Assembly: GCA_017893485.1 (NCBI GenBank)
Contig: CM030367.1
Span: 90,221,121 to 90,285,120 of the forward strand
DNA from: Hemerocallis citrina
Taxonomy: Eukaryota; Streptophyta; Magnoliopsida; Asparagales; Asphodelaceae
DNA: 64,000 nt
Direction of reading: 5' to 3'
Shown here: piece by piece, positions 41,366-64,000 of the stretch
How positions within the stretch are numbered: the stretch's first letter is position 1
Layout: each line of letters starts with the position of its first letter
Position numbers and translations under genes: made by a program
The notes under the pieces: generated by a model
Database searches by the model: none
The model's input: only the letters and a program-made list of their open reading frames with translations
Told to the model about the DNA's origin: nothing

Positions 41366-44121
41366 TGTAACGCCCCGAATCCCAAAATTACTGAGTTCGA
41401 GATGTTCTTCAGGATCTTTTCGCTTTTCTCGAGTACAATTTTACAAGGAAATTCAAACTTTTCTTTTTTACATCAGAGTTACAACATCTTACATTTAAAT
41501 TTACACAGCGGAAGCAAAATATACAACATTTACATAAATGAACAATAACATAATGAGATCTTTATGCATCCATTCCTCTTTACATGTAATTTATCCTGCA
41601 TACAAAACTGTGGGTACGTCAGTTTATTCAACCGACGATAATTATACATGGCTATCCTCTCTACGCCAGAAACAGTATAATGAATCTCATTTCTTAACAA
41701 ATCACAATCTTGTTCATAATAAGCATGTAAAATCAAAGGGAACTTTTAGAGATGTCGTGTCGTGATTGTGCACTTAAGCCTTAATGCAATTATTTAATTA
41801 ACACATGACACTAATGCACACTTGTTCGAATTCTATGCATCCCATACTACATAGGTTCGAGGGCAAGCCTCTTAATCGTTCTTCATTTTTGTAGGGTTCA
41901 ATCCCCCGCCATGACTTACTCTACTTCTGTAAATTCAATGAGTATCTTAGATGATTCTATGAGTACAAGCATGTATCCTGGCCCCTGGAGTAGAATTTCG
42001 CGCCATGTCTTGACTCGTCAAGCATGCATTCTGCGACAATTCAGCCTCCTCCCTGAACACACTCCTCTTGCAGTCACCAAAACATTCCACAAGCGTGACT
42101 AGAGTCCGATCATTACTGAGTTGTGCCCGCGCCATGTCTTGACGCATCAAGCATGCATTCTGCGGCTCACACACCCGCACCGTACCCTAGCTCTCATACT
42201 CATGTTTTTCTCTCACCTTCATCACCTCCACACTATGTATTAAAGTTACATTAGAATCATGAATAAAAATCAAGCTCTAGAGTTAGCCTCTCCATCAACC
42301 GGACTTATCATTTCATTTCACTTGACCAACCTGGTCTATTTCTCAATATCATTTCATTTCACTGCCGGGGAGACTTAGCTACTCCTTCGTTCAATTTCAA
42401 ATTCACAATATCCAATTGAGCGTCATCAGCTCATGATTTCGTTTTAGAGTCCTACAGACTTTCTCATCATGATTTAGCCTTTCATAATTATTCATTTAAT
42501 TCTCAATTCTCATCTATGATTCCTTTCACATAATTCATACAGCCATAACCAGAATCCATCGATAAAAGCATAAAGTTCATCATTACCAACAGTAAATAAC
42601 ATGAATCAAATTATCAAAGTCCACTCTGTACAGTCGACTTGGAAGAATACCAGTCGACTTATACAGTCACATACAGGTTCCTCATAAAAGCTCGGGATAG
42701 TCGACTGTTGCACTCAACCAGTCGCCTGTCCCGCAACCTTCCATATTCATAATATTATCCACATAACAGTCGACTGTTCATTAATCAGTCGTCTGTCCTG
42801 GAGATTCCAAACACATAATTTCCAAGTCCAGATCAGTCGACTTGCTACACGCATTCGGTCGACTGGATAGATCCATTTCAATTAGGGAATTTATTTACAG
42901 TTCTTACGTGTACTTGCATCATGATATCAATTAACAGTATACATCAATTCATGTTCAGTAACATTCACAGCATAATTTTCCCAGTTATTAACATGCTCCT
43001 TTAGAGAAAACTACTCTAAACATGTATTCGCATTGCTCATACTTTCTTACAATAATGAAGGTACAAATCTCAAGTCATCATAATGGGTCTACGTAAATAG
43101 AATATCTTTATTCAGGGGACTTTCAAACAGTCATATTCAGGATGAAGCACCAGTCGACTTAACACCAAGTCAGTCGACTGCGCCGACAACTTCAGATATT
43201 TATCACTATTAGTTCTTTTCATTTATTTACCTTCCCTCCATCATATGTGTCATAGGAAAATATACAATTAATAATCACACCATCATGTCTATTGCACACA
43301 TTTTATCAGCACATTATGAAAAGTAGTGTCTCGTACCAGTCGGCTGGCTCACATGGTAGTCGACTGTACCGACAGTCTTGTCTCAATATTACTAGCATGT
43401 TCAAGCAATTTCTACCGCATTCCATTCACTTTTTATAACATAGTATCAATCATAACAATTGCAATATCATTCCTACATTAGAAGTCCTGAGAAACACCCA
43501 CCTTATATGAAGAAATAATCGAAATCCCGCAAAGTCCTTCAACACCGTACTGCACTCCTTGCTCCTTTGTTCCACACCGAGCTCCTCAGAATGCTGCTCG
43601 ACTCCACAGAAAAGCTCCCACACAACTCACAGATACTCTCTTGAAATCTTAGGAAATTTTAGTGTAAAAGAGATAGGGAATAGGAGGGGGTATTTATACT
43701 AGAATATAGGTGAAATGGAGGGCTGAGATTTGTTGGGGAGTTGGAGATCAAAAGCTGAGATCAGATCGGGAGTTGAGAAAACTACCCACAACTCAAAGGT
43801 AACTACCCATGATCTAGCCCATCACTCCACAACCCGGCCAAAAGAAGTGCTCAAAGCACGTGTATGCGAAAGCACGTGCATGCACCAACTACACCCTACA
43901 AATAGTATATCAAATACCCGGCCAAAAGAAGAAAAAGATGTCACACATGCTGGTTATAAAAATACAATAGAAGGGGTTTTAAATCCATGGGCTAAAATTA
44001 ATTGGGTCAAACTAATTATCTTGTAGAAAAACATTTGGGCTTAAGAAACAATATTACACATGCATATCATATGTAGAATTAAATAATCTTTATATATATT
44101 TAGAAAAATCGGGGTATTACA
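41366..44121 (-). mobile_element. solo LTR of a chromovirus-type element, 2.76 kb
   Basis: Plus strand TGTAACGCCCC...GGGGTATTACA, with a perfect ATAAT duplication (41361-41365 and 44122-44126). The TATA box is on minus (plus TATTTATA 43691-43698), so orientation is minus. Contains six pairs of the CAGTCGACTG palindrome (42631-43366) and a duplicated stretch around 'cgccatgtcttgac' (42001 and 42131). Confidence 0.9.
42631..43366. repeat. six pairs of the CAGTCGACTG palindrome in the solo LTR
   Basis: Pair starts: 42631/42651, 42698/42719, 42767/42786, 42834/42856, 43151/43171, 43337/43357. Within-pair spacing is 19-22 bp. The first four pairs recur every 67-69 bp. Most copies match at 9 or 10 of 10 positions. 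The spacer sequences differ. Confidence 0.92.
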
Positions 44122-45948
44122 ATAATAATTGATAAATTTTGTTGACCAGTACCTACAGAAATCCTGGGGGTTTGGGCTAGACCTCCTAACACCCAAGGAC
44201 CGGCTTGGAATGCAGGTGTTTATTACCCAAACTATGTTTGGGGTGCGGTGTTTTTATCGCCCAAGCTATCGGCTTGAGGCCCGGTTATTACCCAGCTCAG
44301 CTGGGGTGCGGTGATATTCCCTCGATGGCAGATGTTGCGAGGAAGTACCTTAGTGAAACTAGGGGTGCGGTGTTTAATTTCCCTCGTTGGTTTTCCCACG
44401 AGAATGTACCCAAACTATGTTTTGGGTGCCGTTTTTCCCTCGCTGGCATAGGCTGGGAAGAAGATGTAGCCTCGGACATGTAAGACCCCGAGGGGGGCAG
44501 AGGTCCGCGTGTTTACTGGGCTGTCAGCTTTCAGCATATTGGGATACTGTGGCTCACTGGTCGACAAATTAATAAAATGAATAAATTTGGAATGAAAAGG
44601 AAAATGAGAAAATGAGATGGTAAAGAAAGCATATGAGGTGATATGTGAATGAGAAAGAAAAGAAAGTATCTGATGTAAAGTGAAAATGAGAAAGTAAAGC
44701 AAGTGTGTGAGTTGAAATGAATAAGTAGAGTAAAAGAAAATGTATATAAATGAAGAGGAACATGAAAGAATATGATTCATGAGTATGCAAAGGAAAATGA
44801 ATGGTAAAAGAAGTATGTGGTTAAATAATTGTGAAAAATGAGGTAATTGCATTATGTAATTATAAATGAAAATAAAGAAATGGTGATATGAAGATAATTA
44901 TGAAAATAGGAACATCTGTGTTATGGAATGAAATATAAAAGTAAAGGAATTATCTACATGAATTAATATAGTGTTATGTATTTAAGTATATAGTGAATGA
45001 AATTATCTATATGAATTAATATGATGTGGTGTATATGAGATTAACCATGAAAGAATTATGTATGAAAAATTGGTGTGAAGCGAAGAAAATGTGGAATGGA
45101 AATATATGATATGAATAAATAAAAAAATAAAGTAGTATGTGATATTGGTGTGATACAGAAAGTGATGTGTGTTATGTGATGATATTGAGAATGATTTCAA
45201 AACTAAAGATCGATAAGTTGTGATAGAGTGGATATACGTTGATATACCTTGGAATTGTGTCGAGGAACTACTCGTCCACTATTTTCATGGAAACGGTGGG
45301 AACTACCTGCCTTGGCACAACTCCCAGTGTGAATTAGTAGTTTGTTGATATGATAGTTGTATTGTGAGAAGAAAAATAAAGTAACAAAAATTGTAAGATG
45401 AAAATGAATTATAAAATAAAGTAATACCTGAGCTATCGGCTTGAGATGTGATGTTGTATTACCCAAGTTCTACTTGGGGTGCGGTGATATTCCCTCGATG
45501 ACACTTGTCGCGAGGAAGTACCTTGTTTATCTGGGGTGCGGTGTTTCCCTTGATGGTTTAGGCTAGGAGGAAGACGTACCCTCGGGGGTGTCACTCTGTG
45601 TGAGCAGCTTCCCGCATGTATACTGAGCTATCGGCTTCAGTTTGATGGGTTTTGTGGGCACTTATAAGAAATTGTGTATGTTTGTGTTTGGAAATGGATA
45701 TGAGAATGGTAAGTGATATTGAAGAGAATGAGTGAAATAAAAGGTATGGAATTGTATGGGTTTACGAATGAAAGGAAAGCAATGATAAGTGTGTGATGGA
45801 ATAAGAATGGATATAAATAATAAATGTGGGGCACTATAATGAATGTTTTGATCTTTATATGATGAAACAGAACGTATGTGTACAAAGTGAAGAAAATAAG
45901 TTAAGTTATGAAGTAAAATAATATTTTTGCTTTTAACAGAAAGTACGA

Positions 45949-45949
<1 letters not shown>

Positions 45950-45999
<50 letters not shown>
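45950..45999. repeat. (AT)n microsatellite
   Basis: About 24 AT dinucleotides. A second run of similar length lies 110 bp downstream. Confidence 0.95.
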
Positions 46000-46002
<3 letters not shown>

Positions 46003-46104
46003 ATCCGATATGGTGTAAGAATGTTGTAATAGAACTTTATACTTGATATTATGATGATTATTAGTAACAAAGTGAAGTAATATATAGTCGGGAATGAAAG
46101 TTAG

Positions 46105-46106
<2 letters not shown>

Positions 46107-46155
<49 letters not shown>
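46107..46155. repeat. (AT)n microsatellite, second run
   Basis: About 24 AT dinucleotides. The text between the two runs is not repeated. Confidence 0.95.
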
Positions 46156-46157
<2 letters not shown>

Positions 46158-46746
46158 GTGGTGGTGATTAAAAGGTGGGATAATTGTTATGTTTAAATTA
46201 AGGATAATGAGATGTATGGGGTGGATTTGCAATAACTATACTGTGGGCTATTTGATGATATGGTTACATCATAATTTCAAATGTACTTTTATTCTCGGGC
46301 ATTTCATTGTTTATAACCTAATTTACTGCCATGTTGGTATTTTAAAAGTTTCTGTTATCATTTATTTTATTTTATTTTATTTTGACTAGTTAAAGGTAGG
46401 GAAAGTCCCTACCTCACAATATATATTAATATAAGAGTAGGAAAAAATACATATACACAAAAGGATCAAGCTAGTTAGCTTACAACCTCTGCTGAACTCT
46501 TGATCCCAAAATATAGCTTAGTAGTCTATCTTTACCCAAGTAAAATTCATTACAGTGCCCAAAAACAACTTCCAGAAGACATAAAAAAAAACTAATACTG
46601 GGGGGAGCTCAACCCGAGCAACTATCTTCTCCACTTCCCCCCCTGATCAATCCTGGTCAGAGCCTTCTTAAGGAGGATATCTTGGGCGCCAACCATTTCC
46701 ACTGCGCGTACAAGTTGCTCCTTCTTCTTGCTATTCTCGAATCCAT

Positions 46747-47514
46747 CTAGACAAGATAGAAACCAAAAGATTGCATTAGAAATAATTTCCCTTGGTTGTA
46801 AAATCTTTGAAGAAAAAATGCGATCATTTCTAGCCAGTCAGATACTCCAACAGATTGATATTGTGAATAGGTCCTAAGTGTGTCTGTGTACATGTGTCCC
46901 AAAGCACCATGAAGTAAAGCATTCATGCAAATCAGCAGACAAAGTGTGAATGTAGAAGAGTGTAGTGAAGAAGGTCCAAGTGTTAATGGAAATTGAGCAT
47001 GCAAAGAAGATATGGTAAGCCGTATTGACAGAACATGCACAAGCTGTGCATGTCATGTCTCCCAACTAGCCTTTGGAGTGGAGGAAATCCATGGAGTCGA
47101 GTCTATCCCAACTCAGTTGCCAGATGAAGATCTTGCATTTCAGGGGGGCTGCAGAAGTCCAAGTGGCTTCAAAGTATTGGGATCAGAGACCAGAGATAAT
47201 GAAGAAGTCGTAGGCTGATTTGACAGTGAAGGTTTCTGAGGGTGTGAGCCTCCATGAAGGGGAGTCCCTGAGTTTGAAGGATGGAAGTCTGCAATCAGAT
47301 CTAGCAGTCTTTGTTTCTCTCGAATGGTGGGGTTAGAGATGCAGTGAAGCCATGGTCACCAGTGCCAGATGTTATTGATCCAAGCTCCTTGGGAAATAAC
47401 ATCCGCATCCAGGTTCCATGCTGCAGCAGCGAGTGTAGGGCACAAGGAGGTTATGTTGTTGCCATTGATCCATCTTGACATCCAGAATTTGATCTGGTTT
47501 CCATTTCCCAGCTT
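46747..47514 (-). pseudogene. LINE ORF2 C-terminus with zf-RVT box
   Basis: At 47065-46960 the text 'CTACACSVNTAYHIFFACSI' matches the zf-RVT pattern C-X2-C...H-X3-C that ends plant L1 ORF2 proteins. 47514-47065 is stop-rich, with fragments of the connecting region. 46370-46746 is the 3' untranslated region. Confidence 0.7.
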
Positions 47515-48953
47515 CTAGTTTACATTATGCAAGAATTGCTCCTTAAGAAGGAAGATACCTTTCCAGAAGTTTGAAGCATTTGAGGGGTATATCAAGATGT
47601 TAGAATTTCCTTTATAGTATAAGCTCCACAGCGTTTGGCTAGCAAGCGTGTCTGAAGAGACAATCTTCCACCACCATTTCATGGGTAGGGCTTCACTGAA
47701 AACTTTCAGGACAAGAATTCCAAGCCCTCCCTGTTGCTTGGGTTGGCAAATATTCTTCCACCTCATACATGCCACCCCTCTCACATCAGTGTCGGAACCA
47801 CTCTGAAAAAATCTACTTCTAATCTGATCAATTATTTTGATCACCCGACTGGGGAGTCTAAAGAAAGTGGCGAAGTAGACTGGCAAAGCACTGAGTACAG
47901 AATTGATTTGTATTAATCTCCCACCTCTAGAAAGCATCTTGCCCTTCCACACTGAGAGTCGTCTTTCAATCTTGAGAATGAGTGGTTGCCAATCTCTTTT
48001 GCTAAGTTTCCCTCTAGTGAGAGGCATGCCAAGGTAGTTAATCGGTAAGTTTTCTTGCTTGCAGCCCAGAATGGTCGAGAAAGCCTGAAGCTTTGCTCTT
48101 GATTTTCCAAAGTAAATAAGAGAAGACTTGTTAAAATTTATGGCCAGACCAGAGACATTTGCAAATAGTTGTAGTGCCACTTTAAGGTTAAGAACTTCCT
48201 GTTCATCTCCTTTGCAGAAGAGAAGAGTGGCATCTGCAAATTACAGCACCGTCAGATTTGCAAGGGAGCCCCTAAAAGGAAGAGGAAAGAAAGCACCATT
48301 TCTTCCACCCTAGAAAATCATCTGAGCAAGCACATCAATAGCTAAGATGAAAAGCATTGGCGATAGAGGATCCCCCTGCTTGAGTCCTCTCTTGGAGTTG
48401 ATTAATCTTCCCCTTCTCCATTTATGAGGATTGACAATTTGGCCATTCTAAGGATCATATGGATCCATCTGCACCATGTTGGTCCAAAGCCTCTGGCGAT
48501 TAAAAGTTGATCAAGGAATTCCCAGCTCACTGTGCCAAACGCTTTAGTGAAGTCAATCTTGAATAAAACTGTACCAGAGTTGCATCTACTGCAGAGGTTG
48601 ATAGCTTCATGGGCCACAAGAAAGCAGTCAACAGTTGATTTATCTTTCAGGAAAGCACTTTGAGAGGACGAGACAAGAGAATGGAGGATTGGACTTAGCC
48701 TGTTGGCAAGGATTTTGGTGAAGGTCTTGTAGTAGCAGTTGAGCAAGCTGATAGGTCTATAGTCAGAGACGGTATTTGCACCCTCACATTTGGGGATGAG
48801 CATAATGTTGGAGTAATTTATTCTATCTAGATCACTGTCCCCTCTCTGCACTGATTGTAGCCTGGAAAATAGGTCATCTTTGATAGTGTCCCAAAAGACC
48901 TGATAAAAACTCATCGAGAAGCCATCAGGTCTCAGTGCTTTGTCGCTACTCAT
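47515..48953 (-). pseudogene. LINE ORF2, reverse transcriptase
   Basis: Reads 'LRPDGFSMSFYQVFW', 'IMLIPKCEGANTVSDYRPIS', 'LFKIDFTKAFGTVSWEFL' (motif A, with Gly for the usual second Asp), then a break. Motif C at 48229-48240 encodes Phe-Ala-Asp-Ala instead of Phe-Ala-Asp-Asp, with a stop directly before it. The C-terminal part (48180-47515) is long and open: 'LAINFNKSSLIYFGKS', 'LPINYLGMPLTRGKL', 'WKGKMLSRGGRLIQINSVLS'. Loss of the second motif C Asp would abolish polymerisation. Confidence 0.9.
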
Positions 48954-49040
48954 ACCAAAAACAGCTGTTCGAACCTCCTCCAGAGTGAACGGGGCATTTA
49001 AATACCGTAAGTTGATGTCATGAGATGGATAGTGAGAGTG

Positions 49041-50262
49041 CTAATCAATCATAAAATCGGACTGAGTAGCTGTACCATAAATCTCCTTGAAGTGATTTTC
49101 AAAAGCAGTTCTGATAAGAGTGGGAGATGTTGTAAGTGTTCCATCAATAATGAGAGTGTGGATGAAGTTTCGCCTCCTCCTCCCATTTGCGATTGAATGG
49201 AAGAATTTTGAATTCGCATCTCCCGCTTTGATCCATTGCACTCTTGACCTTTGCCTCCAATACACAGCTTCGGTCTTGATAAGGCTATGGAGTTCTAGTT
49301 GGGTTGCCTTGAGGGAATCATCAGTTGAAAGGTTTTGCTCAGCTTCAATCTCCAGTTTGAGGAGTTTTTCTTGGAGTTGCTTTCTTCGAGTTGGGATGTG
49401 ACCAAAAGTATCATTCCTCCATCTCCAAATTCTTCTCCTGAGATGTTTGAGCTTGTTTGCAAAAATATCAGCCGGCGTACCAGAGTGAGAGAAGAGCTTC
49501 CACCAATCTCTAACCGCAGGTTCGAATGAAGAATGTTGCAACCAGGCTTTCTCGAATCTGAAATAGTGGACTTGATGGGTAATTTCATGAGTGTCAAGGA
49601 CAATGGGGCAGTGGTCAGTCAAGATTCGGGGGGGGGGGGGGGAGTGCTGAATACAGTTGCAAAAAGATGATTCCCATGCTGCAGAGATCAAGAATCTATC
49701 TAGCCTAGCCATTAAGGGTGAGGTTCGGAGGTTAGACCAGGTATACTTTCTGCCTAATAGGGGGAGATCAATGAGAGCAAGATCTTGTATGAATTCACGA
49801 AAATATCTCATGTCTCTATTGGAACCCCTTCCACTAGAGCGCTCAATGTCTGAGATGGTGACATTAAAATCTCCACACAGGACTCAAGCATCCTTGAGGC
49901 TGCTTCGTAGTTTCCTATCCTCCATTTCAAAAGGTGCATAGACGGTTGTAGTTGACCATTCCTCCGATGAAGTGCAATGCTTGAAGGAAGCATAAATAGA
50001 GAAAATATTAGCAGAATAGGTGCAATCAAGAAGTAGGTCATTCCAACCTAGAAGAACTCCTCCACAGCTGCTAATTGCGTCTAAGTGGATCCATCTGGTG
50101 ATAAGGCTCCCTCTAATTGATAAGAGCTTGCGGGGTCCTGGATGCTTGAGCTTTGTCTCTTGAAGGCAGATTATAGAGGGGGAGGAGCTGCGAATACCTT
50201 CTTTAATAAGTGAGCATTTGTCAGGATTGCCCAACCCTCTTACATTCCAGCTAGTTATCTTC
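49041..50262 (-). pseudogene. LINE ORF2, endonuclease domain
   Basis: Starts 'MKITSWNVRGLG' at 50262, then 'IICLQETKLKHPGPRK', 'GGVLLGWND', 'CGDFNV' (GDFN codons 49863-49874), 'RKYTWSNLR' and 'RLDRFLIS', then 'LTDHCPIVLD'. These are the Asn, Glu, Asp-Asn and Asp-His catalytic boxes of the exonuclease-endonuclease-phosphatase fold. It nicks target DNA for target-primed reverse transcription. At least one frame change at about 49810 splits it. The catalytic boxes look preserved. Confidence 0.85.
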
Positions 50263-50341
50263 ATCGAAAAAACAAATTGCATCAAATTGCACAAGAACAC
50301 AAATAAAAATTTTTGATCCTTAGGACCATAGAATAGGGCAT

Positions 50342-52290
50342 CTAATCAGAATGTTCTAGTTGATCAGAGTGATCAACCACAACCTTCTGAGAGCCCTTCA
50401 AGACATGCACCGAGTGTGGCCCTTTAGCATCCACTCCAATAGATTCAGCTACTTCAAGAATATCCTCATTTGATAAAAGCTCGAAAGGATTAAAGTGTGC
50501 ATTAGTAACTGAAGCAATTGAAGATGAGGTACCTGTCATCTTGTTCTTGATTGTGGTAGACAGATGCTTCATGAAAGGCCGAGTACTTTTGATCTTGCTT
50601 GCAGATCTGGAGCATTTCACACTCTTAGAGGGACCATCTTCGAAGCCTGGGGGGACGGAGTTGAAGGAGCTAGCAGATTTGGGCACAGTCCTCCTGGCCA
50701 GGAAGTGTGTCTGAAAGCTGTCAGCACAGGGTTTGCTAGTGCCAGCTTGGAAGATCACTTTATCAACTTCACCAGGCTTGGTCATCTCCTCCTGAACTGA
50801 CTCCCTAAGCACCTCCTCAATCGAATATTCTTTAGATGAGTCAGTAGGGTTGTACGAATCTTGAGTGGGGCGTTGAAGTGCTGCGTTATTATTGTTATTA
50901 GAAGATTCTGAAATTGCAACAATAGGGAATTCCAGCTTAGCAGGATTTGAATTCAGGACGGGAACCTCCGCAGACTTTAGAGCAGTTTCAGGATTAGGCA
51001 AAATCCCCACATTCAAGCTGGATTTCGCCACGTTTGGAATATTCAAAAAACTTTCCAAAATATCATCTGCATGCGGATATTTCACTGCAGTTGGGCTCAC
51101 CACCCTGGAATCACGGGATTTCAAATCAGCCCCAGTCTCAACCTGGGTCAGAGGTTGACTTTAGGGGCCGCCTTTACCGGCTTCGCATTGACCTTCGGCC
51201 ACTTTGGGGTGCCAGAAACTGACACTACCTTTCTCTTCGGAAGATCCCACCATGGTGAAAAGTTGGACTTTGCCATTCTGAACATCTTCTATAGGGATCG
51301 AGTCTCCACGGAGCAGTATGGGGAGATCATGGACATGCGTTTCAAGGTTCCAAGGTGCGGTGTACTTAACAGTGAGGGTCTTTGGGATGAGCATCAGATA
51401 TTCCACTTTAATAAGAGCAAGCGCTTGGTCTCTGGACTCCGCATCTTTCATCTCCCTGCGTAAGGTAATGAGCTTGCCAAAAGGTCTGATGAGGTACTCA
51501 AGCAACTCATGGTTCCATAAATGGAAAGGCAGATGAGGGAGGTTGACCAGATGAAACTCCGCTTCGGCCTGAGCCTGGCCCCAAAGTCTAGCGGCCAAGG
51601 GGAGAAGGTAGCACTGAATTCTGAAAAGTGAAAGACGCCATCTACAATCTCACCTTCAGCTTCTGTAATTGTAGGAAACCGGACATGATAAACACAATCA
51701 CTAACCCTCTTCAGGGTCCACCATCTACCTTGCCTCCCTCAGGAGAAGTTCAAGGCGCACTCAAGGTCCTTAGTGAGAGGGATACAGCTGGGATTAATGA
51801 GATGAAGGAAAGTGCTTGCATGCAGTGCCGGTAGAGCTTGAGAGATGGCATTTTTGTGGGGGAGCTCTACCTCCAATGCATCATGCCGATTGTTGATTGG
51901 ACAATCTCGCACCTTGTGGCCATACTTCCTGCGGTTGAAGTAGTGAAACCCCAACTTTCGGCATTCGGCCGCAGCATGATCTCCTTCGCCACACTTGAAA
52001 CACCTTCGCTCCATCTTCTTCGAATGGGGATTTTTTTGGGTAAGGAAAGGTTGCTTTTTGGGGTAGAGGGCTGAGGGTTTCGGTTGGAAATAGGGTTTGG
52101 GGTGAAAGGCAGGAGTGGAGTGGAATGTGAGGGGACAAAGAGATGTGAGGGTTTGGAGTTAAAAAGGGGATGGTGCGAGGATCGAAGGGGTAAGGGTGTA
52201 GGGCCATGATGAAAAGGAGATGGGGGGGGGGGGGAGACGCACCTGAGCGTAAGATCTGCTCGAGCCCCGAGGAACGAAGGCATTCTCTCT
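50342..52290 (-). pseudogene. LINE ORF1 (RNA-binding protein)
   Basis: An intact CCHC knuckle CFKCGEGDHAAAEC lies just before 51960. A second, decayed one follows ('YFNRRKYGHKVRDC', the leading Cys residues lost). Next, 51598-51161 reads 'FHLVNLPHLPFHLWNHELLE' and 'PFGKLITL', like the DUF4283 RNA-binding region of plant LINE ORF1. The last part (51124-50342) is a Ser-rich tail. The product would coat the LINE RNA. The unusual order, knuckle before the RNA-binding part, may reflect frame shifts. Confidence 0.65.
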
Positions 52291-52323
52291 CCTCACCCCT
52301 CTCTCCATTTTTCATTTATTTTA

Positions 52324-54612: not shown

Positions 54613-56169
54613 ATGGTGAAGTTTACAGCAGAGGAGCTCCGTGGGATCTTGGACCAAAAGAATAATATTTGTAACATGTTTGTCATTGCTCATGTGGATC
54701 ATGGTATGACAATGTTCTCACACATGCAGCATTATATGTTACATGATAATCATCCTTTTTTTTTGGGGATTGAATTGTTTTATGAGATTTTGGCCATTTT
54801 CTATTTGTTTTTGGCCTAATGAGTTTTATTGGACAAATTATATATTAAAAAAAATTGTTTGCCTACTGTGCAAGGGTTGTATTTTTCAGCAAATTTTTGT
54901 CACATTGTTTTGCACCATACCTTCCTTTATGTTATCCATATTATGATACTTTTTTGAAAAGACAAATTTTAAGAGTTTGTAATATCATTAGTAAATATAC
55001 GTGGGTGTCCAAATAATATAATATCATCAGTCAATATAAGCTATTGAATATGCATGTGATGAAGCAGTACTGGACATTTTCAATGTAGATTTGTATCATA
55101 TATTTAAATTTAAGTATGTAGAATGGTTAATAAAATCCACAATCAATTTATTTGATTACATGCTAGATGTTGTTCATTTATGCATATGTTGGATATACAA
55201 GGGTCAAAATTAAAAATAGAAATGTTGGTCAGTTGAAAGAATGGCTTAGCTTATATAATCATTTATTTGCATATTTAATTGTACTTTCTTTTGCATATAT
55301 ATGCATGTAATATAGTAGTATTGCAGTCAATCACCTGGATAACAATATTACTACAGTTATAACAAAAGATCAAAATGTGGCCTCATTCCCCTGTTTCAAA
55401 TCACACCTATAGAATTTGTTATCTACAATGATTTGGAATCTGTTTATTTTTAAACAAGAGTTATCTTTTTGAATCTTGAAAAGGTTTGCATCCATGTTGC
55501 TTGGTTGTATTGTATTGCATCCATTGATTTATTGATCTATCCATGAGGTTAGACATATAATATAGCCAAGTAATAAAGATAATGTTCTTTGTTTTTCTTT
55601 TGTGAGTTTGCCGTATTCCAACATTTGTTTTCACTTACTTTGAGTTTTGTAATAATGAAATTTGGTGACCTTTATTTTCACATTGTTCATGTATATATGT
55701 TAAATGAATAGGAGTATCTTTTTGCTATGATGTGGTTCTATTGTTTATATCCTTTTGTATGTACTTACTTTTTAATTTTATTGTTGCACGAAAATCTACT
55801 CTTACCGACTCTCTTGTATCTGCTGCTGGTATTATTGCCTAAGAAGTTGTCGAGATGTTCGGATGACTGATATTCATGCTAATGAAGCTGCGCATGGTAC
55901 CACGATCAAGTCAGTTGGAATTTCACTTTACTATAAGATGACTGACGAGTCTTTGAAAGCATACAAGAAATGGAAACATGTATCTCATTAACCTTAATTA
56001 TTTATTCTCTCGAACACATTGATCTCTCTTCTGAGGTCACAGCTGCTCTCCGATGGAGCTTTGGTTTTCATAGACTGCATTAAAGGTGTTCGTGCACAAA
56101 CAAAGACTGTTCTCCAACAAGCATTGGGTGAGAGAATTGGGCCTATTTTAACTGTCAACAAGATGGATC
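54613..56169 (+). pseudogene. elongation factor 2 (eEF2) pseudogene, N-terminal part
   Basis: Exon 1 (54613-54703) starts [14 protein letters not shown] and reaches HVDHG, the first part of the GTP-binding P-loop of eEF2. The intron is 54704-55789 with donor gtatga. The acceptor dinucleotide is AC instead of AG (55788-55789). Exon 2 (from 55790) begins '[16 protein letters not shown]', then a TAA where eEF2 has Gln, then a one-base frameshift. Recognisable pieces follow ('VRMTD', '[17 protein letters not shown]', 'SSEVTAALR', '[17 protein letters not shown]') with a degraded stretch at about 55980-56030. At 56170 a retroelement LTR cuts it off. Retention of the intron shows it came from DNA duplication, not from mRNA. 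eEF2 is the cytosolic translocase of translation; this copy cannot encode it. Confidence 0.93.
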
Positions 56170-59100
56170 TGTAGGGCCCCGAATTTCATAATAGGAAATA
56201 CAAAACACAGATCCAGATTCTTTACTTCAGTGTAAACCAAACACAGCACAAAATACAGAAAAATTAAAACTTACTTTACATCAATACTCAATACAAAGCA
56301 CGGCGGAAATTTTACAACACTTTAATACAACTTGAATCAGTAACTCAAATTCAATCTTCTCATAGCTTAAGCTTTAACTCCTACTAAGCTAATCACTTGT
56401 AAATCATGCAAAATAAACTAACCAAAAAGTGGGCACGTCAGTTAAATGTAACTGAAGTTTAAGCTGATTAAAGCAGCGACTCTCCAATACCTCACAACTA
56501 CAAGCTTTTTGCACAACATAAAATAAAACAATCATAGAAAAGATTCATAGAACAACAAGTGAACTAGACCAAAGGAATAAGTGCGTGTTAAAAAGAAAAT
56601 AAGATGAATACATAAAACAATGTTCAAGAAAAACACAATGCACACGATGCACACTAATGCATACTTGTTCGGATTCAATGCATCTCATACTACATAGGTC
56701 CGAGGGCAAGCCCTTAGCGTACTCCACATTATAGGGTTTAATCCCTCCCTATGCACCCTACTACCATGACTTGTATGAGATTTAGATAGTTTGCAAATAT
56801 TGGCTCTCGCCCCGGAATAGTGGAGATCAATCCCACTTCGCAGATAATTCTAAGGCCTCTTTCATCCCTCGTCCCGGAATACTAGGGATCATCTCACTCC
56901 GCAGGTCATCTTGGAGTCCTCATTGCACAAATATCCTATAAGCGTCGCTCTCATCCCGGAATACTCCAGATCAATCCCGCTCCTCGGATCGTTCTTAGAC
57001 CTCTTTAATTCCTCGTCCCAGAATACTTAGGATTATCTCACTCTGCGGATCATCCTGGAGCCTTTATACTCACGTTTGCTCAAGTTTAATCATATCTCCA
57101 ACTAGTTCTTGTCCTTACGAGTAAAATAATAACCTAAGCCACCTAGAGCTAGCTCCACCCTACTGGACTTAACTCTATAAAACTAGGAAAACTAGCCCCA
57201 TAGGCTAAATCCTACAATCAATTTACTCACTGCCGGTAATCCTGGGTCCTGCTCAGCCTCTATTGCTCACAACACAAGGTCTCAACAATATCCTTCCTAG
57301 GGTTTCTCACAATAATCCTAACTTTTAACACGAACCACCCATTGGTTCGATATAACAAAATATTCTTTCTCTTATCCACCTCTGGAACATCACTTTTCCA
57401 CAAAACATCTCAATTAAGATTTGTCTCATTCCAAATATAAACATTCATTTATCTACAATCCTCCTATCATTACTCTTCTATGATTTAATAAACATTTCAC
57501 TTCCTTAAAGATCCCCTTTATTTATAGATACAAAATAATTTAAATATACATCTTCTAAATTAAGTCACAATGCTCCTTTCCATATTAAAAAACACACTCA
57601 AATTTTTGGAAGATTTATCAACTTTAAAATTGAAATAACCCTCCTTCAATTCTGGGATTTATCCCAAAAATCTAAAATTTTGTAGTTTAAAAAATCTGAA
57701 ATTGACAGCTCTATAAAACTGAGATAAATCTTCAAAAATTTGAAAAGATAATCCTTCAAAACTGAGAATTCCTTCCATAAATTTGTAGCTTTATATATTC
57801 GCAATCACCACTCAACTTGTCAAAAACTGAAAACTCATTTTTCTTTAAATATGAAATTTATGCCTTCTTATTCTTAAGAATAGTCCATTTAAAAATGAAT
57901 ATTTAATTCTAAAATAGTTTATATTTACTTCATAAACATAGAATTTGTTGCCAAATTTATAAATCCATTCACCCAAAATAGAAGCTCTAAATCATCAATA
58001 AACTAAAACAAGTTCTTTAATAATATCTGAAACTTGCAACTTTAATTCGTGATCAACAAATCATTAAAAACTCCCCATTATGGTCAATTATAATCATGTA
58101 TATACATCCACAACCCCACCGGGGTATACAACCCTAGTTCACACAAAACCCCTACACAAACACTCCAAAACACCCTAGCGCAGTGCTGGCCGAATCTAGC
58201 ACTGTGCATACCGCAGCCTTGGGTTTGCACAATGTTCGGGTTTGGCACTGTGCAACCCCAGGTTGGTTGCACCCGAAACCCTAGCCCCTCAGGTTGTGCA
58301 CGAACCCCTAACTCTTGGTGGCCAAAACCCTAGTTCCATCCAAATTTGATTCTTTTTTATTTCAAAACCCATTATTTTATGCTCCAATCCATGAAAATTA
58401 ATTTATAAAAATTCTACTCTATAAAAACAGTGAATTAAACATAAAGATCATCTTTTAGTGATAAAACTAATATTAAGGACATATGACAAGTTTTAATCGT
58501 CTACATTATTATATGGGTTCATTAGATCCAATTTCACGGGCAAAGAAGTGATCTTTCACACTCAATAATGTTCTTAATTTAAGAGTAGTCTAAACAAGAA
58601 TACCATGCTATCAAGATTTGATTTTTCATCACATTAAGAAACAATATATCTCTACAACCATCTCATAAACGAAACACCACATTCATGCTAATATAATCAT
58701 ATATCACAAAATCTAAACCCTAGCATGATTTTATATTGTTCATGTGAAATAAAACACATCAAGAGACATGGAGTAGATGCCCACCTTTTTGTAGATTGAA
58801 CACATGATCAAGAAAGTCCTTCTCCTCCTTAAGAAGTTGATCTCCACTCTTGAAACCACCAAAAATCACCAAGTAAAAGCAGGGAAAATGCAGGCTGAAA
58901 TTCCACTGCTCTTATATATATGGCCAGGCTCAGTTTCAGGGTTTCTTGAGGGAGTTTTTGTAATGTAGTCCCTCTACAAACCCATATTGCATTATCAATT
59001 ATTTACTCAATCTTTCCAATTATAATTCAATCTAACATGGATAAATATCCATCCAAGAATATCTCTACTGAAAACTGGCCCCCAAATGTGGCCAACAATT

Positions 59101-59403
59101 TTTTCTTATATCGTTTAAATTTTGGCTCCATACTTCTCTTTACACCAAAGCCCTCTTCTTTTAAAATATTTACAAAAATAGTTTATCTTATTCAGAAAAT
59201 ACCAAAACTTCCAATAAATCGAATTATAATTAGGAGAATTTATTTAGTAACTCAAAATTTAAAATTTACATTTTAAAAAATATATGCACGTGTTTTGCAC
59301 GTGCAAAACGACAATAACACAAAAATTCAAAATAGTCAAAATAGTTAATTAGATAATTATTTATCAATTCAAAATATCATATTTAAATTTCTGGGGCGTT
59401 ACA
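56170..59403 (-). repeat. 3' LTR of the chromovirus, 3.2 kb
   Basis: Plus strand TGTAGGGCCCC...GGGGCGTTACA. A TATA-like TATATATA on minus lies near 58912-58921. Near its left end it carries 'gcggaa' and 'gggcacgtcagt' words shared with the other chromovirus-type LTRs of the window. No partner LTR in the window. Confidence 0.82.
56800..57065. repeat. tandem repeat in the chromovirus LTR
   Basis: Two units of about 140 bp, each of two half-units built on '(cgt)cccggaata' plus 'gatcaatccc' or 'gatcatctca' and 'cgcagat'. Confidence 0.8.
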
Positions 59404-59420
59404 TCATTCCCTTCTTTCCT
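59404..59420 (-). promoter_or_regulatory. polypurine tract of the chromovirus
   Basis: Minus strand GAGGAAAGAAGGGAATGA immediately before TGTAACGCC. Confidence 0.75.
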
Positions 59421-59466
59421 CATAACTACTGCTAGTATGGGAAAACAAACAATTGCAATACAAGAT

Positions 59467-59999
59467 TTACACAAAAAGTTCGGGAAAATCAGTCTTCATC
59501 TGGTCCTCAGATTCCCATGTAGCTTCCTCAAAGAGTTGATTCCTCCATGCCACTTTGACCATCAGTATGACGTTATTTTGCAGAACCTTCTTTCGATGAT
59601 CCAAGATCTCTAGAGGTTGTTCCTTGTAGCTCAAATTCAGCTGTAGCCACTTGGGTACCTCGGGTAACCGATGATTCTGATCTGGTATGTACTTCCTCAA
59701 CATGGAAACATGGAAACTGTTGTGCACCTGTGCCAATTCTTATAGTATTTCCAATCTGTAGGCTGTCTTACCGATCCGTTTTAGAATCTTATAGGGTCCA
59801 ATATACCTTGATGCCAACTTGCCTCCTCTTTCGAATCTGATTACTCCCTTAGTAGGTGATAGCTTTAGGAAAACAGCATCCCCAACCTCAAATTCTAAGT
59901 CTCTGCATCGAATATCTGCATAACTCTTTTACATGCTCTGCGCTTCGACCAGTTTCTTCCGAATGAGCTCAATCTTCTCGGAAGTCCGCTGCACGATCT
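59467..59999 (-). pseudogene. chromovirus pol: integrase C-terminus and chromodomain
   Basis: 'VHNSFHVSMLRKYIPDQNHR' (the conserved element before the chromodomain) leads to 'PLEILDHRKKVLQNNVI', 'VKVAWRNQ' and 'EEATWESEDQMKTDFPELF', the chromodomain. In this family the chromodomain directs integration to chosen chromatin. The stretch 59740-59999 keeps integrase C-terminal text but is broken by stops. Confidence 0.85.
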
Positions 60000-60779
60000 T
60001 CAGCCCAAACATCTACCTATCGCCAACCTCATACCAACAGACGGGTGTCCGCACTTCCTCCCGTACAAAGCTTCATACAGCGCCATCCCAATACTCGCAT
60101 GATAACTGTTGTCATGGGCAAACTCCATCAGCGCTAAATACTTCTCCAAGCTTCCACCGAAGTCCATGACACATGATCTCAACATATCCTCCAGCACTCG
60201 ATTGACCCTTTCAGTTTGTCCAACAGTTTGTGGGTGAAATGCTGTACTGAAGTCAGTCCTGGTCCCCAAAGCGGTCTGCAACTCCTCCAAAACCTCGATG
60301 TGAACCTTGCATCTCTGTCAGAGACGATAGTCATAGGAACTCCATGAAGCATCACGACCTTCTCAATATATGCCTCGGCCAACTTCACCAATGACCACGA
60401 AATCTTCATTGACAAGAAATGTGCCGACTTGGTCAATCTGTCCACGATGACCCAGATCGATTCATTCCCCTTCAGATTCCTTGATAAACCAGTCACAAAG
60501 TCCATGCTGATATTCTCCCATTTACACTCTTGAATGGGCAATGACTGCAGCAATCCCCTAGGCTTCTGATTCTCCGCTTTGATCTGCTGAAAAATGCAAG
60601 CAGCCTGCCACAAAATTCGTAACAGCCTTCTTCATGCCTGGCCACCAAAACAATGCTTGATGTCCTTGTACATCTTCGTGCTTCCGGGATGTACAGACAA
60701 TAAGGTTGTATGTGCCTCCTTCAATATGATTTCCTTCAAATCCTCTCTTTTTGACACACATAACCTTTCTCCCATCCAT
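60000..60779 (-). pseudogene. chromovirus pol: integrase
   Basis: A zinc-binding part (60779-60590, '..GHQALFWWPGMKK..', with the second Cys of the CxxC apparently changed) is followed by the catalytic core: 'ENISMDFVTGL', 'IWVIVDRLTKSAHF', 'MTIVSDRDARFTSRFW'. After a frameshift at about 60285 comes 'FHPQTVGQTERVNRVLEDML'. The three acidic residues (Asp, Asp, Glu) are all present but split across frames. Confidence 0.88.
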
Positions 60780-60862
60780 AGAACATCATCTTGAATTCGA
60801 AATTCTGACAATTTTTTGACGGAAATATGCTATTTCATCTTCTGAATCTCTGCATCTGACTT

Positions 60863-61660
60863 CTAGCCATCAATGATTGGTGCTATCAAGGTAGGCTGGA
60901 GTCTCAACTGAGCCAACGTTGCCCCCAAACCTTGCAAAACCACCTCAACACCTACTCGATCTAGCTCCACGGCCGACTCCTTCTGCATCGTGATTAGACG
61001 AGATAGACTAAACTTCTGACTGTGTGCATCAGCCACCACATTTGCTTTTCCTGGGTGATACTTAATCTCAGGACGAATATCCTCCAACACTTCCAACCAA
61101 AGCCTCTGACATAGATTCAAATCTTTCTGCTAATCGATATACTTCAAACTCTTGTAATCTGTAAACATGTTGACATTCTCACCATATACATAGTGCCTCC
61201 ACTGCTTCAAGGCAAAAATGATAGCTATGAGCTCCAAATCATGCATCAGATAGTTCTTCTCATGAGGATGCAACTGCTTTGACCCATATGCAATGACCTT
61301 CCCTTCTTGCATCAAAACACATCCCAAACCTCTGAAAGATACATCACTATAGATATCGTAATCTACACCTGCCAGCGGTAATACCAGAATAAGTGTTGTC
61401 CTCAACTTCTCCTTCAATTCTTGGAAACTAGCTACACATTTATTCGTCCACTTGAAATCCATATTCTTCTTTGTCTGCCCTATCAACGGAATTGCCATCT
61501 GCACGTAGCCTTGAATGAAACGCCGATAGTATCCCATCCAACCTAAGAAACTTTGGACCTCCTTCACTGTTGTCAGTCTAGGCCAATCTTTCACTGCCTT
61601 GATCATCTGAGGATCAGTGGCCACTCCTTCCTTAGAAAGGATGTGACCCAGAAAGGCCAT
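60863..61660 (-). pseudogene. chromovirus pol: RNase H
   Basis: 61660-61130 is open for 176 codons: '[20 protein letters not shown]', '[15 protein letters not shown]', '[18 protein letters not shown]', '[17 protein letters not shown]', '[16 protein letters not shown]' and '[13 protein letters not shown]'. This covers the end of RT and RNase H. The usual first Asp of the family (DAS) appears as SDVS. The tail (61120-60863) has 'DIRPEIKYHPGKANVVADAH'. A stop lies between the two pieces. Confidence 0.9.
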
Positions 61661-61668
61661 TCAGACTT

Positions 61669-62170
61669 CTAGAATTCACACTTCGACAACTTGACATACA
61701 GATCCTTCTCTCTCAGCTTCTTTAAAACTTCTACTGAGTGTTGAGCATGCTCTTCCTCAGACTTCGAGTATACCAGGATATCGTCGATGAATACCACGAC
61801 GAAAAAGTTAAGGAACGGTCGCAAAACCATGTTCATCAAATCCATGAATATTGCTAGTGCATTCGCCACTCCAAACGGCATCACAAAAAACTCATAATGC
61901 CCGTGCCGTGTCCGGAAAGCTGTCTTGTGCATATCTTCCTCCTTAACTTGGACCTGATGGTAACCTGACCGTAGATCAATCTTCGAAAACATAGTCGCAC
62001 CTTGCAGTCGATCAAATAAATCATCATTCCTTGGGATCAGATACTTATTTTGAATGGTTACCTAGTTCAGTTTCCGATAGTCAATGCACATCCTCATTGA
62101 CCCATCCTTCTTTTTTACCAATAGAACTGGTGCACTCCAAGGCAAAGCACTTGGTCTGATAAATCATTTC
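61669..62170 (-). pseudogene. chromovirus pol: reverse transcriptase
   Basis: Opens '[20 protein letters not shown]' at about 62140, then a stop in place of the usual residue after 'RKLN'. 61992-61669 is then open: '[20 protein letters not shown]' (motif A), '[20 protein letters not shown]', and '[15 protein letters not shown]' with the catalytic FIDD box at 61780-61791. The protease domain that should precede RT is missing. Confidence 0.92.
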
Positions 62171-62401
62171 TGCAACAGTTCCTCATTCTGCTTCCGTCAA
62201 TGTTGCTCTTCTAATGAGCTTGTCGAACCTTCTGATCCCCAATGGTATCATCTGGGACCTAAATTCACTCAGTTCGGCCTTAGGCCCTGCTTGAACTTTC
62301 TTGCTTTCTTAGATTCATCTGCAATGAGCTCAGTAGTGTACCTCGACAACTTAGTGAATTTAGTCAAATACTCTCTTACTGACGAGTTGCCCTGCTGTAG
62401 G
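62171..62401 (-). pseudogene. chromovirus gag remnant joined to RT
   Basis: 'QQGNSSVREYLTKFTKLSRY' and 'ESKKARKFKQGLRP' are the gag core of chromoviruses. 'FDKLIRRATLTEAE' follows, then directly the RT opening. The zinc knuckle and protease are therefore deleted. The upstream part of gag is cut at 62402. Confidence 0.75.
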
Positions 62402-62578
62402 TGATGAACTCAAGAATATTCACATTTAGGAGCAATAATCTTATTGCAATTGGACATTTAAACGCTCTATATGTGGTATTTTACTCTTCTTTTCTCTTTT
62501 CCATAGGAAACAACCAAAAGCAGCAAAACGAAGCAGATTCCAGACTGAGAGGATGATATACAGGGAACTGTAGTGCAA

Positions 62579-63424
62579 CAGTCGACTTGCTCTTCATCAG
62601 TCGACCGAATAGAGAGATTGCTGGGGCTCGGCACAGTCGACTGCCCCAACATCAGTCGACTTGAATGAGGAATCATGAAGCCACAAATGTCTCAGCACCA
62701 GTCGACTTACACCCAACACCAGTCGACTGGTATTTGGCGGAGTGAAAAGATAAGATGCATCCGCATCTAAATCCAAATCTATCTGAACCCAGATTATATG
62801 CGAATAACAACTTCTCCAACAAATCAAAGCTAGATACAGGGGATTGGCAAGAGCACGTGGTTAGTAGATAAGGAAGAAAAGAAGAAAAGAGAAAGAAATA
62901 AATCGCCGATAAAATAAAGAAGGAAAGAGGAGGACTTTCCTGAAAAATTGGCAAACCCTAATTCTCGTGCCGTGTTCTATAAATATCAATCAAGAGGCAT
63001 TATTTTGAAGACCCTCCCACCAGCCGAATCACAGAGTTCCAGAATCATCAAGACATCAACCAAGAACATTAATCTATCAGCATCGAAGAAGGAGAGAGGA
63101 GATCAAGTACTCCGAAGGGAACAGAGCAGTCGACTGAGTGACCGCCAGTCGACCGATCTGCCGGACTTCATCAATTTATTTCTCCTCTTTTTAGTTCTTT
63201 TATGTTAATCATGTATTCGAACTTGCTAATCAATAAAAGTTTAATTATGTGGAACTAATTTCATAGTTGGGTAGATTGAAACCAAAGTTATGTAATGCTT
63301 CTATTCTTCTGAGTGCTATTCTGTTACTTATTGATTAAACCTGAGAGTATTGTTATAGATTTATAATAATCAAACATGTTCAGAATTCTAAGGGCAGTCG
63401 ACTGAGGTGACAGCAAGTCGACTG
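62579..63424. repeat. five pairs of the CAGTCGACTG palindrome
   Basis: Pair starts: 62579/62598, 62634/62653, 62699/62720, 63127/63146, 63395/63415. Within-pair spacing is 19-21 bp. Same motif and spacing as the cluster at 42631-43366, in sequence that is otherwise not alignable with it by eye. Confidence 0.92.
62978..62985 (+). promoter_or_regulatory. TATA box of the right-hand LTR-like sequence
   Basis: TATAAATA in 'gtgttctataaatatcaa'. Three palindrome pairs lie 250-400 bp upstream and two pairs lie downstream. Confidence 0.55.
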
Positions 63425-63645
63425 ACATATAGAATCTGAGTTTATCAAGTTTGCGTATTATAAATCTGATTCTGTTATATGAGCATATTGAGACGACTCG
63501 TATCTCGTGCTCATAACTTGTAACACAGGAGTCCTTAGGGGTTCTTGGTTTAATCAACTTGAGGGATCTAGATCTGATACCAATTTCTAGAACTTTGAGT
63601 GTTTGTTCGTTTCCATCGTTCTTATGTTTTCTTTAAGTGCAACTT

Positions 63646-63760
63646 AGTAGATACCATGCTAAATACTTAAGGAAAGAAACGAATTAGAGTAGATACCATG
63701 CCTAATTCTTGACTAGGGAAACAATACTTTAAGGAGTAGATACCATACCCTTAAAGGAAC
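63646..63760 (+). repeat. threefold 'agtagataccat' repeat
   Basis: Copies at 63646, 63688 and 63735 (spacing 42 and 47 bp). Each is followed within about 20 bp by a 'cttaagg' or 'ctttaagg'-like word. Confidence 0.75.
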
Positions 63761-64000
63761 GAACATGAGTAACTAGAGTAGTAAAGAAGGTGACTTAGCA
63801 TTACTGACTACAGGTGGAAATCAAAACCCAACTACTTGATAAATATTTGTGATTCAGAACTTCTTGATATAGTTTTTAATCTTTTTATTTCTTTAGATCA
63901 ACACTTTAAGATTCTTATTTCTATTTTATTGATTAGTAAGTTAATTTCTACAATCTCTGTGGGATCGACCCTTGCTCGTCACTACGCTTCTATAAACGAT

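What the first reader, a model, noticed from the sequence alone, without database searches (positions are those of the whole stretch)
42631..63424. Eleven pairs of the palindrome CAGTCGACTG at a fixed 19-22 bp spacing, in two unrelated LTRs
CAGTCGACTG is a perfect 10-bp palindrome. By eye it occurs as 11 pairs, six in the solo LTR at 41366-44121 and five in the LTR-like sequence from 62402. Within pairs the start-to-start distance is always 19-22 bp, about two helical turns. Motifs are conserved while the spacers vary in sequence, and four pairs recur every 67-69 bp. The two host LTRs are in opposite orientation and do not otherwise align by eye. Conserved sites with free spacers and helical phasing suggest a binding site for a dimeric or tetrameric protein, for example a host regulator or a retroelement-encoded factor. 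An alternative is a mobile micro-repeat that spread between LTRs by template switching. I know of no described plant element defined by this pair.
Basis: partly seen in the sequence, partly recalled or inferred. Interest (0 to 1): 0.75.

Follow-up and report, generated by a model that had tools for sequence, protein, structure and literature searches.

The report
Paired palindromes shared by unrelated retrotransposons
In this plant genome a ten-letter DNA palindrome, often set in pairs two turns of the helix apart, occurs hundreds of thousands of times and sits in several unrelated kinds of jumping gene, even inside their protein-coding stretches, which looks like a shared control signal that some DNA-binding protein recognises.

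Summary
The window has 22 CAGTCGACTG-like sites (<=1 mismatch; shuffles 0.75), all in 11 pairs at 19-22 bp in two non-homologous LTRs. In the 3.78-Gb host genome CAGTCGACTG occurs 337,030 times (reversed word 756); AGTCGACT repeats within 8-38 bp at 224,687 places (control 76), and 95 of the 100 listed lie at 19-22 bp. Pairs occur in chromovirus-like gypsy, Athila-like gypsy and Sirevirus-like copia elements. In Athila-like elements they also sit inside long ORFs, in inter-domain linkers, in all three frames, so the constraint is on nucleotides. Palindromes outlast spacers and the rest of the LTR. Pairs carry an outer flank NN-C-Y-G. A second palindrome, CGGTCGACCG (68,410 sites), pairs alike and equals the published grape Sirevirus motif. 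Closest known: the palindromic repeated motifs of Sireviruses; sharing by gypsy lineages, two-turn pairing and coding insertions were not in the passages I read. Best reading: a bipartite protein-binding site exploited by many retrotransposons. The binder is unknown; no binding or function was tested.

The parts
41366..44121 (-). LTR1: solo LTR of a chromovirus-like Ty3/gypsy family, TSD ATAAT on both sides
   Evidence: TSD and TG..CA ends; the family's internal region L033 gives RVP_2, RVT_1, RNaseH and Integrase_H2C2 above Pfam cut-off, rve below it, on the minus strand
42631..42660 (.). LTR1 pair 1, CAGTCGACTT-N10-CAGTCGACTT
   Evidence: kept in L006 and L001, first site altered in L013
42698..42728 (.). 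LTR1 pair 2, TAGTCGACTG-N11-CAGTCGCCTG
42767..42795 (.). LTR1 pair 3, CAGTCGACTG-N9-CAGTCGTCTG
42834..42865 (.). LTR1 pair 4, CAGTCGACTT-N12-CGGTCGACTG
43151..43180 (.). LTR1 pair 5, CAGTCGACTT-N10-CAGTCGACTG; the spacer differs in related LTRs while the palindromes largely stay
43337..43366 (.). LTR1 pair 6, CAGTCGGCTG-N10-TAGTCGACTG
   Evidence: lost or not alignable in L013
43691..43698 (-). TATAAATA, one of three TATA-like matches in LTR1 (sense positions 24, 424, 685; this is 424); all six pairs (sense 756-1491) lie downstream of all three
   Evidence: consensus match only
62402..64000 (+). LTR2: LTR sequence (3' end not delimited) of an Athila-like Ty3/gypsy element whose ORFs follow beyond the window (L029)
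   Evidence: L029 ORF with RNaseH and integrase domains downstream; the pair-5 spacer recurs at both ends of the related element L038, 8.2 kb apart, so pair 5 is in the LTR
62579..62607 (.). LTR2 pair 1, CAGTCGACTT-N9-CAGTCGACCG
   Evidence: altered in L005 and L008
62634..62662 (.). LTR2 pair 2, CAGTCGACTG-N9-CAGTCGACTT
62699..62729 (.). LTR2 pair 3, CAGTCGACTT-N11-CAGTCGACTG
62978..62985 (+). TATAAATA, the one TATA-like match in LTR2; pairs 1-3 lie upstream, 4-5 downstream
   Evidence: consensus match only
63127..63155 (.). LTR2 pair 4, CAGTCGACTG-N9-CAGTCGACCG
   Evidence: absent or not alignable in L008
63395..63424 (.). LTR2 pair 5, CAGTCGACTG-N10-AAGTCGACTG

Best explanation
The unit is a bipartite cis-element: two 10-bp palindromes (core AGTCGACT) mostly 19-22 bp apart, with short outer flanks, roughly CRG-NN-CAGTCGACTG-N9-12-CAGTCGACTG-NN-CYG. 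It most likely is the binding site of one DNA-binding protein, or a small family, that sits as two dimers or a tetramer on one face of the helix and promotes retrotransposon activity (transcription or escape from silencing). Chromovirus-like, Athila-like and Sirevirus-like elements of this genome carry it, so the binder is more likely host-encoded, or encoded by one element and exploited by others, than specific to one family. New copies arise by insertion of short stretches bearing a pair (template switching or local duplication); pairs that fit the protein's geometry are kept while spacers drift. Shown: sharing, spacing, motif conservation, insertion in ORFs, frame-independence, outer flanks. 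Inferred: protein binding, stoichiometry, an activating role, identity of the binder.
For: 337,030 CAGTCGACTG sites, reversed control 756; AGTCGACT repeated within 8-38 bp at 224,687 places, control 76; 95 of the 100 listed are at 19-22 bp, in 44 spacer clusters. Three lineages by Pfam domains. Palindrome identity 0.82-0.93 against 0.48-0.73 in spacers and 0.61-0.80 in the rest of the LTR in five comparisons; CpGs kept 0.69-0.92 in motifs against 0.37-0.53 elsewhere. Pairs inside open ORFs, with copies in all three frames, some at 20-bp spacing. The RNaseH-integrase linker with a GTCGAC site in 794 copies; without a pair in L029 and in 99 of 99 plant homologues whose linker could be extracted, of 120 listed. 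Outer flank C-Y-G, 51 of 82 flanks against 11-21 of 82 at eight shifted positions, at least half of the flanks in 6 of 7 lineage groups. A second palindrome class, CGGTCGACCG, 68,410 sites, 19 of 20 close intervals at 20-22 bp.
Against: No binder, binding, methylation or expression data. Departures from the consensus are rarely mirrored within a palindrome: 2 of 52, so two equal half-sites are not shown by covariation. In LTR1 all pairs lie downstream of the TATA-like boxes, in LTR2 on both sides, so a plain promoter-enhancer role is not obvious. CpG retention is significant in 2 of 5 comparisons only (L006 p=0.011, L001 p=0.003; L013 0.09, L005 0.29, L008 0.25), and motif against rest of LTR is only p=0.05 for L005. 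In pairs fetched later the flank rests on 18 flanks: 10 of 18 against 3-6 at shifted positions; C p=0.02, G p=0.004, Y not significant; it is weak in the Sirevirus gag-pol group, 2 of 6. Phasing beyond the pair is not shown. In 20 arbitrarily placed 10-kb stretches only 2 held sites, so the distribution is very clustered. The pair-level sequence analysis comes mostly from the first 1.5 Mb of one contig.
Confidence: 0.55

Rival explanations
1. A non-functional micro-repeat spreads by reverse-transcriptase template switching and slippage between co-packaged RNAs; palindromes are preferred jump points and the pair is a by-product of duplicating a unit of about 21 bp.
For: 54-bp in-frame insertions in the RNaseH-integrase linker; the right part of subtype A matches a stretch that lies just downstream in L029. 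A coding pair of L036 matches an LTR pair in L041 at 30 of 32 bases. Four copies at 21-bp steps in L037.
Against: Does not explain why palindromes stay while spacers drift between related LTRs, why 95 of 100 listed pairs are at 19-22 bp over 44 spacer clusters, or the outer-flank preference.
Confidence: 0.2
2. The pair works in RNA: a 10-bp stem-loop, or palindromes that pair two genomic RNAs (dimerisation or packaging), shared because lineages share a need.
For: The two palindromes of a pair are mutually complementary; many pairs lie in coding parts or downstream of TATA-like boxes.
Against: Of 52 departures from consensus in 41 pairs, the stem partner is paired in 2, wobble in 10, broken in 40. 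The terminal pair does not covary (odds ratio 0.9, p=1). Flanks are no more complementary within than between pairs (p 0.41-0.97). Three LTR2 pairs lie upstream of the TATA-like box. Intermolecular pairing is not excluded.
Confidence: 0.12
3. The pair is a host-side handle: a host repressor or silencing factor recognises it and elements tolerate it, or it feeds hairpin-derived small RNAs as proposed for maize Sirevirus palindromes.
For: Palindrome-rich LTR regions of maize Sireviruses are small-RNA hotspots (PMC5311732, passages).
Against: Elements would be expected to lose such sites; instead coding linkers gained them and related LTRs keep them.
Confidence: 0.08
4. The motif was inherited once: an old LTR segment with the array was passed by recombination among lineages, and shared sequence reflects common descent of that segment, not a shared binder.
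For: 13 of 24 non-redundant neighbouring-pair intervals are 66-71 bp, in more than one lineage.
Against: LTR1 and LTR2 do not align outside the motifs; pair number and position relative to the TATA-like box differ; coding pairs lie in inter-domain linkers.
Confidence: 0.05

Closest known systems
Palindromic 'repeated motifs' (RMs) of Sireviruses, Bousios et al. 2010, PMC2829016 (passages and section 9 read)
   Same: Short palindromes, many copies per LTR and more in the internal region; one published RM (Vitis, CGGTCGACCG) is identical to the second palindrome class here and differs from CAGTCGACTG at two symmetric positions; a Sirevirus-like copia of this genome (L030) carries the motif.
   Different: There described as Sirevirus-specific, with consensus sequences that differ between elements, drawn upstream of the TATA box; no pairing rule in what I read. 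Here gypsy chromovirus-like and Athila-like elements carry the same palindrome, set in pairs two turns apart, also inside coding linkers; 337,030 sites genome-wide.
Maize Sirevirus LTR palindromes, Bousios et al. 2016, Genome Research (recalled, and cited in PMC5311732; paper not held)
   Same: Palindrome-rich cis-region of LTRs that evolves fast and attracts small RNAs.
   Different: One copia genus; sharing with gypsy not reported as far as I recall.
VANC anti-silencing targets in VANDAL transposons, PMC5735166 (passages; abstract of PMC10398659)
   Same: A short motif accumulated many times per element, evolving through tandem repeats, recognised by a DNA-binding protein; VANC6 also affects an unrelated element.
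   Different: VANDAL transposons encode their own VANC; the motif is a 9-base word, not a palindrome pair; binding reported in non-coding regions.

Membership tests
Sirevirus palindromic RMs (PMC2829016) | Lies in Ty1/copia Sireviruses and is absent from the other retrotransposons compared there | tested here: not met
   LTR1 family (L033) and LTR2 element (L029) have Ty3/gypsy-type domain sets; only L030 is copia, Sirevirus-like by a copia gag and weak coiled-coil matches below Pfam cut-offs
Sirevirus palindromic RMs (PMC2829016) | Dyad palindrome present in at least eight copies per element | tested here: met
   12 sites in LTR1 and 10 in LTR2 with <=1 mismatch; only 6 of the 22 are perfect
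Sirevirus palindromic RMs (PMC2829016) | CGG-CCG signature (all but Tnd-1) | tested here: not met
   Main motif is CAGTCGACTG; the second class CGGTCGACCG meets it, but its host elements were not fetched
Sirevirus palindromic RMs (PMC2829016) | Clustered upstream of the TATA box | tested here: not met
   LTR1: all six pairs downstream of the TATA-like boxes; LTR2: three pairs upstream, two downstream; boxes are consensus matches only
Sirevirus palindromic RMs (PMC2829016) | Extra copies upstream of an env gene; CpG island at the cluster | not tested
   No env region was fetched for the two window families; no CpG-island call was run
VANC-type anti-silencing targets (PMC5735166) | Motifs in non-coding regions | tested here: not met
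   Pairs also inside ORFs of L029, L036, L037, L038 and L039
VANC-type anti-silencing targets (PMC5735166) | Bound by a DNA-binding protein that removes methylation | not testable with these tools
   No protein, ChIP or methylation data
RNA stem-loop element | Compensatory changes between the two arms | tested here: not met
   2 paired, 10 wobble, 40 broken of 52 departures; odds ratio 0.9

The most novel reading that the evidence does not exclude
A host-wide cis-code: one host DNA-binding protein, or one element's trans-acting factor, is used in common by unrelated LTR-retrotransposon lineages, which independently acquired the same bipartite palindrome pair, even within their coding sequence. 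A second palindrome class (CGGTCGACCG) would then be a parallel specificity with its own binder, the two dividing the retrotransposons of the genome into regulatory guilds.
Probability: 0.3. Interest if true: 0.92.

Novelty: new variant of a known kind. Interest (0 to 1): 0.75.

Why it matters
If right, several unrelated retrotransposon lineages of a large plant genome are wired to a common control input, and the paired site gives a ready probe to fish out the protein. It would make testable a long-standing question, how unrelated retrotransposons co-amplify in large plant genomes, and would turn an unexplained Sirevirus curiosity into a general cis-element of plant LTR retrotransposons. With about 225,000 close AGTCGACT repeats in the genome, such sites would also be possible docking points for host regulation outside the elements.

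Tried and rejected
RNA hairpin: tested three ways (terminal-pair covariation, flank complementarity, partner of each departure); none supports it. Homology of the two LTRs: BLASTN finds none beyond motifs. Helical phasing between pairs: the periodogram gives no robust 10.4-bp signal outside the pair spacing (CGG class, 30-130 bp, p=0.038 with redundant rows and 0.26 with unique distances; CAG class p=0.71 and 1.0); neighbouring pairs prefer 66-71 bp (13 of 24) without proof of phasing. My first non-redundant set for that test was over-collapsed to 4 rows and was replaced. Other plants: the L038 protease-RT linker finds no relative (3 candidates, none scored); 0 of the 99 plant homologues with an extractable RNaseH-integrase linker show a pair-like peptide (21 of 120 had no extractable linker), and a scan of all 120 whole proteins gave hits in one, P0004, of a form that does not look like a pair. 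Literature: CAGTCGACTG anywhere in the text, 29 papers, 20 listed, none about transposable elements by title and start of abstract; Sirevirus, Athila, gypsy/copia and VANC searches; GTCGAC with CBF, 28 papers, 10 listed, none opened. Not answered because the genome server was busy: gaps of 31-60 bp, count of empty linkers, asymmetric CAGTCGACCG (dyad covariation), genome-wide flank counts, CGGTCGACCG pair counts.


Full report
What was checked. The window holds 22 sites within one mismatch of CAGTCGACTG, all inside 42631-43366 and 62579-63424; shuffled sequence gives 0.75 on average. They form 11 pairs with start-to-start distances of 19, 20, 21 and 22 bp (4, 4, 2 and 1 pairs) and unlike spacers; four pairs of the first LTR recur at 67, 69 and 67 bp. 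Six of the 22 sites are perfect palindromes. The two LTRs do not align beyond the motifs. The first, 41366-44121, is a solo LTR with TSD ATAAT on both sides.

Scale. The host genome is held as G000 (3,775,421,867 bases, unnamed). CAGTCGACTG occurs 337,030 times, its reversed word 756 times; the reversed word lacks the central CpG, so it is only a rough yardstick. CAGTCGAC-N11-14-CAGTCGAC has 139,100 matches forward and 139,318 reverse, the reversed pattern 4 and 1; two perfect palindromes match on both strands, so forward and reverse counts overlap. The pattern AGTCGACT, 0-30 bases, AGTCGACT is its own reverse complement and has 224,687 matches, control 76. Of the 100 listed places of that search, all at the start of contig C1, 95 have start-to-start 19-22 bp (3, 45, 35, 12), one has 18 and four have 29-37, although 8-38 was allowed; the 95 fall into 44 spacer clusters. 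Distribution is clustered: of 20 arbitrarily placed 10-kb stretches, 2 hold sites with <=1 mismatch. What fraction of all 337,030 sites is paired was not measured.

Host elements. Internal regions of ten elements bounded by repeated pair clusters, plus 6 kb beyond the window, were fetched. Pfam shows chromovirus-like Ty3/gypsy (L031, L033, L034, L035; L033 is the LTR1 family), Athila-like Ty3/gypsy (L029, which is the LTR2 element, L036, L038, L039, and the gag-bearing derivative L037) and Ty1/copia (L030). L032 gave only a protease-like match just below Pfam's cut-off and resembles the Athila-like group by its translation. L030 has a copia gag and, further on, weak coiled-coil matches below cut-off; PMC2829016 describes a coiled coil behind the zinc knuckle in Sirevirus gag (passages). 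The labels chromovirus-, Athila- and Sirevirus-like are partly recalled; no tree was built.

Pairs inside genes. In the Athila-like elements pairs lie inside long open frames: four pairs in the 1332-aa ORF of L036, others in L029, L037, L038 and L039. By the Pfam boundaries they fall in linkers: gag N-terminal part, before the protease, protease-RT, RNaseH-integrase. The motif is read in all three phases (QST or KST, SRL, VD). Where the spacing is 20, the two copies of one pair are read in different frames. The constraint is therefore on nucleotides. In the RNaseH-integrase linker L029 reads FEINIQLPWF, while L036, L038 and L039 carry 18 extra residues with a pair. None of the 99 plant homologues with an extractable linker (of 120 listed, of 7947 found) shows a pair-like peptide. 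A pattern anchored in the linker and requiring one GTCGAC finds 794 copies, control 0; by reading the 100 listed, they fall into three main sequence subtypes with the pair in different frames, nearly all 89 bp long (two exceptions seen, 75 and 90 bp), against 35 bp in L029. Whether the subtypes are one old insertion or several is open. The right part of subtype A, TATCTCACTGCTCAT-TTTTCC, matches a stretch that lies just downstream in L029, as template switching could produce. The count of empty linkers could not be obtained.

Conservation. Five alignments of the window LTRs with diverged copies give palindrome identity 109/120, 111/120, 98/119, 88/100 and 78/87; spacers 39/62, 45/62, 30/62, 30/47 and 29/47; rest of the LTR 0.77, 0.78, 0.61, 0.80 and 0.78 (partners L006, L001, L013, L005, L008). 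Motif against spacer is significant in all five (p<=0.0014); motif against rest in four, borderline (p=0.05) for L005. CpGs are kept more often in motifs in all five, significantly in two. The partners are related to each other, so these are not five independent tests. Sites were chosen on the window sequence only, so the choice does not by itself raise identity in the partner.

Architecture. In 41 non-redundant pairs (of 136), the outer sides show NN-C-Y-G: C in 44 and G in 47 of 82 flanks; at least two of three letters in 51 of 82 against 11-21 at eight shifted positions. The signal was found on an earlier set and looked at again in 9 pairs from later fetches: 10 of 18 against 3-6, C and G significant, Y not. 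Inner sides prefer R then Y. So the pair is polarised, which two independent sites would not be. The consensus is tight in the middle and loose at the ends: 36 of 52 departures fall at positions 1 and 10, and 50 of 52 are not mirrored in the same palindrome, so covariation of half-sites is not shown. 13 of 24 non-redundant neighbouring-pair intervals are 66-71 bp. Phasing beyond the pair is not established.

Second class. CGGTCGACCG occurs 68,410 times, control 1,600. Of the intervals of 8-38 bp among the 100 listed sites, 19 of 20 are 20-22 bp. This is the RM printed for a Vitis Sirevirus in Table 3 of PMC2829016 (section 9 read). Its host elements here were not fetched. Whether mixed palindromes are avoided could not be counted; the local sample is too small (Fisher p=0.12).

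Interpretation. A conserved, polarised, two-turn pair of palindromes shared by unrelated lineages and independent of reading frame is best explained as a protein-binding site. An RNA stem is not supported: the partner of a departing base is broken in 40 of 52 cases. Template switching is a plausible way of gaining pairs but does not account for their upkeep. The role (activation, anti-silencing or other) is inferred from the fact that elements keep and gain the site; VANC targets are a working analogy, not a membership. By the tests above this is not a Sirevirus RM in the published sense, because gypsy hosts, the main motif's lack of the CGG-CCG signature and the position relative to the TATA-like boxes fail it, though it works like one and the second palindrome class is identical to one.

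Limits. Most sequence analysed at pair level comes from the window, the 6 kb after it and the first 1.5 Mb of C1; 200 kb of arbitrary stretches added two loci with sites. For what is not in print, the searches were made, in an open-licence library only; Bousios 2016 is not held.

Noticed in passing
L025:9751-9795: A pair of CGGTCGACCG-type palindromes 21 bp apart in an arbitrary stretch, and at 5905-6019 four sites with <=1 mismatch 32, 41 and 32 bp apart, in a locus with a SWIM-domain ORF.
   Followed up: partly
G000:C1:226134-226204 (L037): Four AGTCGACT copies in a row at 21-bp steps inside an ORF of a gag-bearing derivative that by its translation appears to lack most of pol, a higher-order form of the pair.
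   Followed up: partly
window 47518-51649, minus strand: ORF pieces that look like a non-LTR (LINE-type) element; one tested piece gives a weak endonuclease/exonuclease match below Pfam's cut-off, the other tested piece none.
   Followed up: partly
window 5339-12922 and 22704-26707: A repeat of about 3.7-4 kb in three copies (90-98% identical), two of them adjacent, perhaps LTRs of a large element.
   Followed up: no
window 18614-19858: Tandem array of a 117-bp unit, 10.7 copies, 95% matches.
   Followed up: no
L036:3700-3780 (linker before the protease): The inserted pair is flanked by near-identical CACAGACAAGCCAG and CACAGACAAACCAG, a possible duplication left by the insertion.
   Followed up: partly
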